Below are positions 21,320-24,648 of a DNA stretch of 64,000 bases, one piece after another; the stretch's first letter is position 1; the number at the start of each line of letters is the position of its first letter. Location: positions 62,001-126,000 of the forward strand of contig CALUWN010000005.1 of assembly GCA_944324495.1 (NCBI GenBank). The letters are read 5' to 3'. The DNA is from an uncultured Mucispirillum sp. (GTDB lineage: Bacteria; Chrysiogenota; Deferribacteres; Deferribacterales; Mucispirillaceae). Below the pieces are notes generated by a model, which saw only the letters and a list, made by a program, of their open reading frames with translations, ran no database searches and had not been told where the DNA came from. A program made the translations under genes and the position numbers.

Positions 21320-22723
21320 CTATCTTCTAACCGCATCTGGTTTTCTAGGGTCTATCCAAATGCTATCTACTATTTCTCTGTTAACTTTATCATATATTAC
21401 AAAGTTAATACCATATTTATTTTTACTTCTTGGTTTACCACTGACATTTATAGTAGCTTTGCCATCAGAAGATACAAGCAGGTTTACAATATTTTTCATT
21501 CTTCCTTTATATGTAACAGGTTTATTGGATATTTCTTCAAAAAATAATTTATTATCATCAATTATAGCAGCATAACGCATATTTGGTTTATCTGTATTAT
21601 ATTTTTTCAACCCAAATGATTTTAAATCATTTTTTAGGGTTTCTGGTAAGTTTTTTAAAACATCACCATTGACAGAAAGCAAAACAGTGTAGTTATCGTA
21701 ATTCGCATACCGTTTCCAAGCTGAAAAAGATTTTGTTTCTTTAATCTCACCATTATTAATATGGCGCATATACTTAATATAGTCCTTGTCCCATGAAGAG
21801 TATCTAGAATCATTTTTATGTGTTGGAATATTGTATTTAGTTATTAAATATGGAATTAAATGATTAGTAACTTTATAACCACCAAATAAGTTAATATGAT
21901 CTTTATCTCTAATATCTGTATTAAAATTAAAATGAATTTGTTCCAATAAAAAATTATAATCAATAAAATCATACCCTTTTTGTTTACAATATTTTTCAAA
22001 AGATTTAGTAAGTGTGATATTATCCGTTATATTAGGTAGGTTGATAAATATTATATGTGCATTATATTTTTTTGCTAAAACATCAAATTTATTCATTGTA
22101 TTTTTAACATATAATGGAATATCAATTATTTCATAATTGGTTTTATCATTTTCTTCTAGCTTCCTTGATATAAATTTAGGTCTATCATTTGCAAGGCCTT
22201 TTAAAATACTATCATTTTTAAAATCATTTTTTGATAATTCTTTCCAACGACTATGGAATAAATTAATTGTATTCATTTCCTGCAGTGCTATTTTTGTATC
22301 ATAATATTCTAAATAAGCAAATATTTTTTTATATAATGGCAACACACTTAAATCTTTTTGTGTTCTATCATCTAAATGTACCCCTTTTAATATAAATGAA
22401 ATATCAATAACAGCGTATCTTATATTATGGTCTTTAAATGACTCTTCAAGAAATAAATATGTAGTAATACTTGATTGACCTCTTGTAGATCTATTAAATG
22501 AAGCTATATTATATTTATTCCAAATATAAAGTGGAGATATGCTATTAAACGTTCTGCTTGTTCCTAAAAAAATAACATCTATATCATTGTATACTTTATA
22601 ATATTCATCAGATATATAAGTTTCTTGTTTAATACTTATAATATCTTCTATTTTATATAAAATTAATATTAAAATAATAAAAAATACAATAACAGAATTT
22701 ATCAATATTAGCTTTATCTTCAT
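21320..22723 (-). CDS. SGNH/DltD-like membrane-anchored acyltransferase with a C-terminal ILEI-like domain
   Basis: 467 residues. An N-terminal transmembrane helix (about 4-24) anchors the rest outside the inner membrane. An SGNH-hydrolase-like domain follows: block I is FLGTSRTF (catalytic Ser candidate S56) and the C-terminal catalytic pair lies in DKDHIN (D273 or D275, H276). This resembles the DltD/AlgJ-X class that works with MBOAT proteins to move acyl groups onto envelope polymers. Residues about 340-467 look like an extra domain whose ending (YGINFVIYDKVNREIVDS) recalls the ILEI/FAM3-like carbohydrate-associated fold; this is tentative. The gene starts 8 bases past the MBOAT gene, so the two form an operon. 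Confidence 0.75.
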   Translation of the reverse strand: MKIKLILINSVIVFFIILILILYKIEDIISIKQETYISDEYYKVYNDIDVIFLGTSRTFNSISPLYIWNKYNIASFNRSTRGQSSITTYLFLEESFKDHNIRYAVIDISFILKGVHLDDRTQKDLSVLPLYKKIFAYLEYYDTKIALQEMNTINLFHSRWKELSKNDFKNDSILKGLANDRPKFISRKLEENDKTNYEIIDIPLYVKNTMNKFDVLAKKYNAHIIFINLPNITDNITLTKSFEKYCKQKGYDFIDYNFLLEQIHFNFNTDIRDKDHINLFGGYKVTNHLIPYLITKYNIPTHKNDSRYSSWDKDYIKYMRHINNGEIKETKSFSAWKRYANYDNYTVLLSVNGDVLKNLPETLKNDLKSFGLKKYNTDKPNMRYAAIIDDNKLFFEEISNKPVTYKGRMKNIVNLLVSSDGKATINVSGKPRSKNKYGINFVIYDKVNREIVDSIWIDPRKPDAVRR

Positions 22724-22730
22724 TCAACAC

Positions 22731-24220
22731 CTAAAATTCAAAATATATAAATTTTAATGGATCATAACCTGGTCCATAGATACCAAAAATTATTATAAAA
22801 ATTATTGCTAAATAATACACTATCCACCTAAATACTAAATTTTGCTTTGCAAGTTCTTCTCTTATTTTTATACCCCTTTCCTGCATAAAAGATACTGCCC
22901 ATAGTATCAAGATAGAAAAGCATAATACCCAGAAATCTTTTCTATCAAGCCCCATATCATATAGGGAATCATCAAAAAATATCCATGGGTTCCACACACT
23001 AAACATTTGTTTAATCATTATAATAGCAGTGTTAATATCTGGAGCTCTAAAAAATATCCATGCAAAATCAACTAATATAAAAGTGATTATTATATTAAAT
23101 AATCTATAACTAAAACATGATGTATTTACTTTAAATATTGTTTCTACTTTATTTCTAACTGGTTTTAATATATCACCTATAATTTGATAAAAGCCGTGTA
23201 ATGCTCCCCAAACTACATAAGTCCAGTTTGCACCATGCCATAAACCGCTTGTTAAAAATACTATGGCTATGTTTCTATATTTTTTTAATTTTGAACATCT
23301 GCTGCCACCAAGTGGAATATATACATAATCTCTAAACCAAGTGGATAATGATATATGCCATCTACGCCAAAAGTCCTGTATATTTAATGCAAAGTAAGGG
23401 TGATTAAAGTTTGCCATAAGCCTAAATCCCATTACCCACGCCGAACCTATGGCTATCGTTGAATAGCCTGCAAAATCTCCATATATCTGAATAGCAAAAA
23501 AGAATGCTGCTATGGCTATCTCTATGCCCTCATATGCTTCATAATTCTCAAATACAAAATTTACTAAAATGGCAGCTCTATCAGCTATTACCATTTTAAG
23601 AAAAAAACCAAAAAGCATTAATAATAAGCCGTCTTTCATCCGCTCATAGTTAAATCTATGCCTTTGATTTATCTGAACAAGTAAATTCTTACTTCTCTCA
23701 ATAGGACCTGCTACAAGCTGTGGAAAAAATGAAACAAAAAGTGCATATTTTAAGAAATTGCGTTCTGCATAGATTTCTTTCCTATATACATCTATTGTAT
23801 AGCTTAATGCTTGAAAGGTATAAAATGATATACCAACAGGTAATATAATATCAAATTTAGGCTGAATTAATTGAATATGAAGTGCTGATAATAAAAGATT
23901 TATATTATCTACTGCAAAGTAAAAGTATTTAAAGAAAAATAGTATGGAAAGGTTTAGAATTAAACTTAATGCTACCCACAGCTTTTTTAATTTGGTAGAA
24001 TTCCCCCCCCCAGTTTATCTGAACGGTCTATTAATATACCACTTAAATATGTGATAAATGTAGATGTAAGCATTAATAAGGCATATACAGGGTTCCAAGC
24101 CATATAAAAATAATAGCTTGCAAGTAACAGCCAAATATATCTAAACCTATGGGGTATTAAAAAATAAAGTAGTGTTACTATTGGGAAAAATATTAAAAAA
24201 TCAATAGAATTAAAAAGCAT
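22731..24220 (-). pseudogene. MBOAT-family O-acyltransferase (AlgI-like), out of frame at a G9 tract (probable phase-OFF allele)
   Basis: Two frames join into one MBOAT protein. The first (start 24220, LFNSIDFLIFFPIV..) runs 77 residues and stops soon after the G9 tract at 24003-24011. The second frame, from the tract to 22731, reads NSTKLKKLWVALSL, PVGISFYTFQALSYTIDVY, then RRWHISLSTWFRDYVYIPLGG and the catalytic His region GLWHGANWTYVVWGALHG. With 7 or 10 Gs the frames fuse to about 495 residues, full length for AlgI-type proteins. These multi-pass membrane proteins pass acyl groups across the inner membrane for O-acylation of polysaccharides. The rest of the gene is undamaged, arguing for a reversible switch rather than decay. 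A sequencing error in the tract is the main alternative. Confidence 0.85.
24003..24011 (-). repeat. G9 homopolymer inside the MBOAT coding sequence (candidate slipped-strand switch)
   Basis: Nine C on the plus strand, nine G in the coding strand, within codons about 70-73. In a genome this AT-rich a G9 run is very unlikely by chance. Adding one G or removing two restores the full MBOAT frame; eight Gs gives another stop soon after. Confidence 0.85.
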
Positions 24221-24263: not shown

Positions 24264-24292
24264 TATATAATATAAAATATAAAATATGTAAA
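24264..24292 (-). promoter_or_regulatory. Candidate promoter of the MBOAT-SGNH operon
   Basis: On the minus strand TTTACA (24287-24292) and TATATA (24264-24269) with exactly 17 bases between, about 45 bases before the start codon. The second G tract sits 15 bases upstream of the -35. Confidence 0.45.
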
Positions 24293-24307
24293 GTGGTTTC
24301 TGCTTCA

Positions 24308-24316
24308 CCCCCCCCC
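24308..24316 (-). repeat. Second G9 homopolymer, upstream of the MBOAT promoter
   Basis: Nine C on the plus strand at 24308-24316. It lies outside any credible coding sequence, just upstream of the predicted -35, where tract length could alter promoter geometry or binding of an activator. A 24-codon frame beginning ATGTGG runs through it, but the product is low-complexity and probably meaningless. Confidence 0.7.
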
Positions 24317-24442
24317 ACATTTTTTTGAACTATGATTAAAAATGCTAATTTATAATAAACTAAGGAAGTATTTATTATTAATATATTTATATTAAAAGTA
24401 TCAGTGAATAAAATTATATAAGTTAAAGCTTGTATATTATAA

Positions 24443-24546
24443 GATTCTTCGCTGTCGCTCAGAATGACAAAGCCACAAGAAGTGGCTCTTTAGTAAGGCG
24501 AGCGTTTTATGCGAGGACACTACGCCCTAGCGAGTAGCGTAGGAAA
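24443..24546. repeat. Extragenic palindromic repeat block
   Basis: A stretch noticeably richer in GC than its surroundings, made of short inverted repeats: ATTCT..AGAAT near 24444-24465, AGCCAC..GTGGCT (24471-24476 with 24482-24487) and CTACGC..GCGTAG (24520-24525 with 24537-24542). The first element has the TTCGCTGTCGCTCAGAATGA form of widespread extragenic repeats. It is non-coding and may be a mobile REP-like element or a terminator cluster. The rest of the 428-base gap (24221-24648) holds only the promoter and G tract described above. Confidence 0.5.
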
Positions 24547-24648
24547 TAGAAAAAGTGGCTGGATATTAAATGGATTTATTCCATAAGCCCGCTTAAATAA
24601 AAATTTCATGGACGGACTTTTTATTATGGATTAAATGATAACCTAGTT

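What the first reader, a model, noticed from the sequence alone, without database searches (positions are those of the whole stretch)
24308..24316. Second G9 tract upstream of the same promoter
Another run of nine G lies 15 bases upstream of a TTTACA-17-TATATA promoter for the MBOAT operon. Two long G tracts 300 bases apart in an AT-rich genome are unlikely by chance. This one may tune expression while the first switches the frame: two-level phase variation.
Basis: partly seen in the sequence, partly recalled or inferred. Interest (0 to 1): 0.55.

Follow-up and report, generated by a model that had tools for sequence, protein, structure and literature searches.

The report
Swollen G-tract in transposon end
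The run of nine Gs upstream of a membrane acyltransferase gene in a Mucispirillum gut bacterium is the end of an old mini-transposon, found in many copies in these genomes, whose usual five Gs have grown to nine; it probably came about by accident and is not a purpose-built second switch, though it sits where it could change gene activity.

Summary
The G9 is real (C9 on +, 24308-24316; G9 on the gene's strand) and not chance. It is not an isolated regulatory tract. Positions 24300-24394 match, at 80-88%, the end of a noncoding MITE-like repeat of the genus Mucispirillum (terminal repeat CTGCTTCACCCCCATTTTT, 8-11 bp target duplications). That end carries G5 in 117 of 127 distinct ends. G>=7 occurs at 3 of 70 sites in this genome and 0 of 72 elsewhere. 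The only other G9 site lies between converging gene ends, so expansion needs no regulatory role. The proposed promoter is no better than chance (57% of shuffles do as well). None of 16 other MBOAT-like loci with a held leader has a tract there. A sabA-like rheostat is possible but unproven. The coding tract in the MBOAT gene recurs at the same site in 9 of 18 loci and is the credible switch. Two by-products are more interesting. The MITE sits a fixed distance upstream of sigma70-like promoters: a -35-like TTG[AC] lies 11-14 nt past the element end in 56 of 127 ends. And six promoters carry C9-10 inside the -35/-10 spacer, before five lipoprotein-like proteins and one barrel-like protein.

The parts
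24308..24316 (-). G9 tract (C9 on +), the finding
24300..24326 (.). Terminal inverted repeat of the MITE-like element, CTGCTTCAC-C9-ACATTTTTTT on + (tract included once; family consensus CTGCTTCACCCCCATTTTTTT)
   Evidence: GGTGAAGCAG occurs 92 times in the genome, 0 for the reversed control; contexts compared
24300..24394 (.). Terminal ~95 bp of the MITE-like repeat (decayed copy; partner end not found)
   Evidence: 80-88% identity to elements of sister genomes G003 and G004, 77% to one in G007
24355..24445 (.). Inner part of the repeat remnant; also in G004 at a place without the terminal motif
   Evidence: 90% identity over 91 bp to L153
24442..24470 (.). Small interspersed repeat, also in another family of the order
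   Evidence: 97% over 29 bp in G026
24471..24627 (.). Second interspersed repeat of about 157 bp next to the MITE remnant
   Evidence: 87-89% identity in G001, G003, G006
24264..24292 (-).
23987..24220 (-). First part of the MBOAT O-acyltransferase gene (ATG at 24220); reading frame interrupted at the coding G9 in this assembly
24003..24011 (-). First G9 tract, inside the MBOAT coding sequence, recurrent site of G tracts
   Evidence: a G tract at this site in 9 of 18 MBOAT-like loci of the genus
22731..23639 (-). Main part of the MBOAT gene as listed from its internal ATG (frame open further upstream)
   Evidence: Pfam MBOAT, E 1.3e-24; frame
21320..22723 (-). 467-aa partner gene directly downstream, no Pfam match at E 0.001

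Best explanation
The G9 is a grown-out terminal inverted repeat of a decayed MITE that once inserted upstream of the MBOAT operon. The family's end reads AAAAAAATGGGGGTGAAGCAG (G5); here it reads AAAAAAATGTGGGGGGGGGTGAAGCAG. Shown: repeat identity, G5 as the common state, and the rarity and genome specificity of expansion. Inferred: replication slippage lengthened the tract (plus one substitution), and at nine G it is now as slippage-prone as the other tracts of this genome. Inferred: it arose without selection for regulation, and any effect on transcription is at most a mild change of spacing or bending upstream of the promoter. On/off control of the MBOAT gene lies in the coding G9 about 300 bp downstream.
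For: Motif count 92 against 0 for the control pattern. Genus-limited in the genomes searched: 70 GGGG-TGAAGCAG sites in the own genome, 72 in six other genomes of the genus, 0 in the remaining 8 of 15 (three of the genus, five of other families). Window 24300-24394 aligns to G5 elements of G003 and G004. Of 14 end pairs not beside one recurrent longer repeat, 7 have exact 8-11 bp target duplications, against 0 of 182 mispaired flanks. Among 127 distinct flanked ends 117 are G5, 8 are G4, 2 are G9. G>=7 at 3 of 70 own sites and 0 of 72 elsewhere. The other G9 site lies between the 3' ends of a chemotaxis-receptor gene and msrAB (gene names are my reading). No tract in the leader of 16 other MBOAT-like loci. 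Promoter no better than shuffles.
Against: MITE ends of this family do tend to sit just upstream of promoter-like sequences, and the MBOAT ATG is 79 nt past this end against a median of 73 nt, so a promoter probably is nearby. Length exactly 9, as in 25 of 37 tracts of the genome, could reflect selection. Only two G9 ends exist, so the convergent-gene control rests on one case. The own genome is a draft and the tract length in the assembly is a consensus.
Confidence: 0.75

Rival explanations
1. sabA-like rheostat: slippage of the G tract just upstream of -35 turns the upstream A7 tract and AT-rich MITE DNA relative to the core promoter, changing contact with the RNA polymerase alpha subunits and tuning MBOAT transcription in steps, on top of frame switching in the gene.
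For: Tract ends 15 nt upstream of TTTACA with an A7 run behind it; MITE ends face promoter-like sequences in this genus; H. pylori T/A tracts next to -35 act as rheostats (PMC4081817, passages read).
Against: Promoter not above chance; the -35-like motif is at offset 7, not the family's 11-14; the other G9 site has no promoter to serve; no tract in the leader of 16 other MBOAT-like loci.
Confidence: 0.2
2. porA-like spacer switch: the tract lies between -35 and -10 of a promoter and its length sets spacer length.
For: Six other tracts in this genome have this anatomy, TTGACA-like, C9-10, TATAAT-like.
Against: No -35/-10 pair with 3 or fewer mismatches in all and a 13-21 nt spacer spans this tract on either strand (first L012 row).
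Confidence: 0.03
3. The tract or its length is an assembly or sequencing artefact of a draft genome.
For: Draft of 62 contigs; homopolymer lengths in consensus assemblies can be off by one (general knowledge).
Against: 37 such tracts with a peak at 9; comparable numbers in other genus assemblies, including a single-contig one, G007; repeat context is otherwise clean.
Confidence: 0.04
4. The tract is inside a short translated leader (ATG just before the tract) whose frame changes with tract length and couples to MBOAT expression.
For: An ATG precedes the tract and a frame is open across it.
Against: The sequence is multi-copy repeat DNA in other genomes; the ORF would run through the candidate promoter.
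Confidence: 0.03

Closest known systems
H. pylori sabA promoter T-tract rheostat (PMC4081817; passages read)
   Same: Homopolymer just upstream of a -35-like element, with A-rich DNA behind it
   Different: There a T-tract, a studied promoter and measured length effects; here a G-tract inside a MITE terminal repeat, promoter unproven, no length data
BrickBuilt MITE with minisatellite, Porphyromonas gingivalis (PMC4596501; passages read)
   Same: Repeat tract carried by a MITE in intergenic DNA; the tract expands and contracts between strains; promoter activity associated with the element
   Different: 23-nt units inside the element, part of the family; here a mononucleotide tract in the terminal repeat, G>=7 at 3 of 70 sites only
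Correia elements of Neisseria (as summarised in review PMC10969869; passages read)
   Same: Short MITEs, mostly upstream of genes, affecting expression
   Different: Correia elements carry their own promoters; here promoter-like sequences lie just outside the element end
Poly-G/C contingency loci (Neisseria porA, Campylobacter; recalled, no call)
   Same: Long G/C tracts in coding sequence and promoter spacer
   Different: This particular tract is in neither position

Membership tests
MITE (miniature inverted-repeat transposable element) | Multi-copy, short, noncoding | tested here: met
   92 motif sites in the own genome (a minority coding); paired ends 43-827 bp apart; the three copies read in full show no plausible transposase ORF
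MITE (miniature inverted-repeat transposable element) | Terminal inverted repeats | tested here: met
   Intact copies begin CTGCTTCACCCCCAT and end ATGGGGGTGAAGCAG; in the window only one end remains
MITE (miniature inverted-repeat transposable element) | Target site duplication | tested here: met
   Of 28 end pairs (27), 14 lie beside one recurrent longer repeat and were set apart; of the other 14, 7 have exact duplications of 8-11 bp, 3 have 8-10 bp with one mismatch, 4 have none. Mispaired flanks: 0 of 182 exact, 4 of 182 with at most one mismatch. Not testable for the window copy, whose partner end is missing
MITE (miniature inverted-repeat transposable element) | Autonomous partner with matching ends | tested here: inconclusive
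   In G001 a recurrent ORF-like tail ends about 30 bp inside the repeat end, next to contig breaks; similar DNA in G004; no whole partner found
Phase-variable (slippage) contingency tract | Tract long enough to be hypermutable and over-represented | tested here: met
   G9; over-representation shown by the gap at 6-8 in the window spectrum and 37 tracts in the genome; hypermutability itself is inferred
Phase-variable (slippage) contingency tract | Length varies within the population | not testable with these tools
   One genome per species held; no reads
sabA-type promoter rheostat | Promoter directly downstream of the tract | tested here: inconclusive
   9/12 match, equalled or beaten in 57% of shuffles
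sabA-type promoter rheostat | Tract length changes transcription | not testable with these tools
   needs reporter assays
porA-type spacer switch | Tract between -35 and -10 | tested here: not met
   first L012 row

The most novel reading that the evidence does not exclude
A promoter-seeking MITE family spreads pre-made G tracts to a fixed spot just upstream of -35 elements across Mucispirillum genomes. Slippage occasionally lengthens the G5 of its terminal repeat into a hypermutable G9, turning a transposon end into a new transcriptional rheostat: transposons seeding contingency loci. The MBOAT operon would be a first case, combined with an older coding switch.
Probability: 0.15. Interest if true: 0.75.

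Novelty: new variant of a known kind. Interest (0 to 1): 0.42.

Why it matters
It shows how a suspicious homopolymer upstream of a gene can be a transposon relic, and gives a concrete test: compare the tract with other copies of the repeat. It also exposes two things worth attention in a mouse-gut genus for which my searches found no phase-variation study (listings; main text of the genome paper, supplement not seen): abundant poly-G tracts, and a MITE that lodges 11-14 nt upstream of -35-like elements. If confirmed, the latter would be a clean bacterial case of promoter-directed insertion.

Tried and rejected
Promoter-spacer switch for this tract: rejected, no -35/-10 pair spans it. Conserved upstream tract: rejected. 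One search gave 18 MBOAT-like loci in the genus; one (L233) starts at its contig end and has no leader, and of the other 17 only the window's own has a G/C run of 6 or more in the MBOAT leader. L226 and L230 have a further G9 about 500 nt upstream of the gene, inside a long open frame. Pairing of the two tracts as proof of co-function: weak, 16% by chance given 37 tracts. Loss of mismatch repair as a cause: MutS-domain genes present. Transposase partner: not found. Literature on promoter-directed transposition in bacteria: one search returned nothing; the listings showed nothing on point.

Reading against myself: MITE ends do face promoter-like sequences in this genus, which raises the chance that a promoter lies next to this tract. 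The offset statistic used ends with at least 100 nt of flank and an AT-rich inner side, from the loci held (not every one of the 142 GGGG-TGAAGCAG sites was fetched); flanks identical in the first 30 nt were collapsed, and 4 of 131 (beside a recurrent longer repeat or a doubled end motif) were dropped, leaving 127. An earlier version with 87 ends gave the same peak. The window copy itself is not in the 11-14 class.

Full report
Observation. The + strand carries nine C at 24308-24316, G9 on the strand of the MBOAT gene. In the 64-kb window, runs of G or C number 445 (length 3), 88 (4), 14 (5), none of 6-8, and two of 9, so the tract is an outlier. The window lies in a 2.43-Mb draft genome of 62 contigs with 37 G>=8 tracts, 25 of them of length 9 (counted from the places). 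By MBOAT similarity it belongs to Mucispirillum: 87% amino-acid identity to Candidatus M. faecigallinarum, 72% to a genome labelled M. schaedleri, over the 302-aa part. G9 is common in nine of the ten genus genomes (16-55 overlapping matches each; 2 in the tenth, a 57%-complete one). It is rarer in 12 of the other 14 genomes searched (0-13), but two same-family genomes have 36 and 69. Two tracts within 305 bp are expected at least once in 16% of random placements of 37 tracts.

What it is. The decamer GGTGAAGCAG that abuts the tract occurs 92 times in the genome, the reversed control 0 times. Reading the contexts shows an interspersed repeat ending ...AAAAAATGGGGGTGAAGCAG and beginning with the inverse, CTGCTTCACCCCCATTTTTT.... 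A minority of the 92 have only two or three G; most of these look like coding matches. Paired ends lie 43-827 bp apart. Of 28 end pairs, 14 lie beside one recurrent longer repeat. Of the other 14, 7 have exact target duplications of 8-11 bp, 3 more have one mismatch and 4 have none; mispaired flanks give 0 of 182 exact and 4 of 182 with at most one mismatch. Three full copies were read and carry no plausible transposase gene. This fits a MITE.

The form GGGG-TGAAGCAG occurs 70 times in the own genome, 44 in G004, 13 in G001, 8 in G003, 5 in G006 and 1 each in G002 and G007. It is absent from G005, G008, G009 and five genomes of other families; reversed controls are 0 throughout.

The window copy. 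Positions 24300-24394 align at 80-88% with the ends of G003 and G004 elements, and at 77% with one in G007. A sister copy (L165) reads ...attagcatttttaatcatagttcaaaaaaatGGGGGTGAAGCAG and the window ...attagcatttttaatcatagttcaaaaaaatgtGGGGGGGGGTGAAGCAG. Beyond that the remnant runs into other repeats (24442-24470, 24471-24627), and no partner end was found. So the G9 is the terminal repeat of a decayed element with the tract lengthened from the family's usual G5.

How unusual. Of 127 distinct ends with 100 nt of flank among the loci held, 117 have G5, 8 have G4 and 2 have G9. A scan of all ten genus genomes for G>=7 before TGAAGCAG finds three, all in the own genome: this one, C7:42777 (G9) and C14:98 (G7). 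The C7 site lies between the end of a chemotaxis-receptor gene and the end of msrAB (names are my reading of the proteins), where no promoter is expected. Expansion therefore happens without a regulatory role.

Promoter. TTTACA-17-TATATA is present, but a 9/12 match or better occurs in 57% of mononucleotide shuffles of this 79-nt AT-rich leader. The scan tool finds 5 sites in the region against 3.6 expected and cannot list this one, as it requires a final T in the -10. Against my reading, MITE ends in this genus do face promoter-like sequences. TTGAC begins 11-14 nt beyond the end in 23 of 127 ends (300 dinucleotide shuffles, offsets 10-15: mean 0.5, maximum 4), and TTG[AC][ACT] in 56 of 127. 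Ends of that class more often have a -10-like hexamer with at most two mismatches at the right distance (48 of 56 against 39 of 71). An ORF of at least 50 aa starts 40-160 nt beyond the end in 29 of 39 ends of that class with enough flank (24 of 51 for the rest). The window copy is not in that class (its TTTACA begins at offset 7), yet the MBOAT ATG at 79 nt is close to the class median of 73.

The other tract. The coding G9 at 24003-24011 breaks the MBOAT frame in this assembly. The same or nearly the same site carries a long G tract in 9 of 18 MBOAT-like loci of the genus, in frame in 7 and out of frame in 2 (the window and a partial G008 locus). A paralogue in the own genome (C8:72564) is in frame. 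This is the ordinary, credible switch of the locus.

Mechanism. Most likely the element inserted upstream of the MBOAT operon, decayed, and slippage lengthened its terminal G run into the hypermutable range. The cell's usual promoter switch has another anatomy: six tracts of 9-10 C lie between TTGACA-like and TATAAT-like hexamers (spacers 15-17) in front of five proteins that look like lipoproteins and one that looks like an outer-membrane barrel (protein descriptions are my reading of the sequences). A mild sabA-like effect remains possible; H. pylori shows that tracts beside -35 can act as rheostats (PMC4081817, passages read).

Known work. The M. schaedleri genome paper (PMC5285517) has no occurrence of 'phase vari' or 'homopolymer' in its main text; it refers to a supplementary text for mobile elements, which I did not see. 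Library searches for Mucispirillum with 'phase variation' or 'homopolymeric' gave four papers on other subjects, judged from listings only. MITEs with promoters or repeat tracts are known (PMC10969869, PMC4596501, passages read). My few searches found nothing on bacterial MITEs at a fixed distance from -35.

Verdict. Observation confirmed; two-level phase variation is not supported as a design, only not excluded. The tract is a grown-out transposon end.

Noticed in passing
genus loci; e.g. L244, L247, L205, L146, L297: MITE ends lie a fixed 11-14 nt upstream of -35-like TTG[AC][ACT] motifs in 56 of 127 distinct ends (about one end per element), often with -10-like hexamers and gene starts following: apparent promoter-directed insertion.
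   Followed up: partly
G000: C4:18594 (L008), C10:100 and 1101 (L022), C10:74535 (L024), C21:26043 (L029), C30:822 (L032): Six promoter-like sites with a C9-10 tract inside the -35/-10 spacer (spacer 15-17), five before lipoprotein-like genes and one before a barrel-like protein: porA-type switches; TTGACATT-C9-(A/G)TGATA(T/A)AAT in four of six.
   Followed up: partly
L015 (G000 C8:45346): A G9 tract between TTGACA and TATGAT with a 19-nt spacer, and a weaker pair on the other strand: possible seventh spacer switch.
   Followed up: no
L009 (G000 C4:22283): G8 tract sits at the Shine-Dalgarno position, three bases before an ATG: possible translational switch.
   Followed up: no
window 24003-24011; L228, L220, L221, L226, L229, L230, L231, L233: The coding G tract of the MBOAT gene recurs at the same or nearly the same site in orthologues and paralogues of several species, in differing sequence context: 9 of 18 loci.
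   Followed up: yes
L226 999-1007, L230 1010-1018: In two other species a G9 tract lies about 500 nt upstream of an MBOAT paralogue inside a long open frame, so paired coding tracts occur there.
   Followed up: partly
many contig ends of G000, e.g. L174, L192, L214: A longer repeat beginning TAAAAGAAAACTATTCACATACTC abuts a 43-bp palindrome of the MITE end near contig ends: possibly the end of an unassembled larger element.
   Followed up: no
L238, L247, L262 (G001): Recurrent ORF-like tail ending about 30 bp inside the MITE end, cut by contig breaks: possible C-terminus of the autonomous partner's transposase.
   Followed up: partly
G000 C48:5609 (L330): An 847-aa open frame with a MutS domain is present, so the tracts persist despite an apparent mismatch-repair gene.
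   Followed up: no
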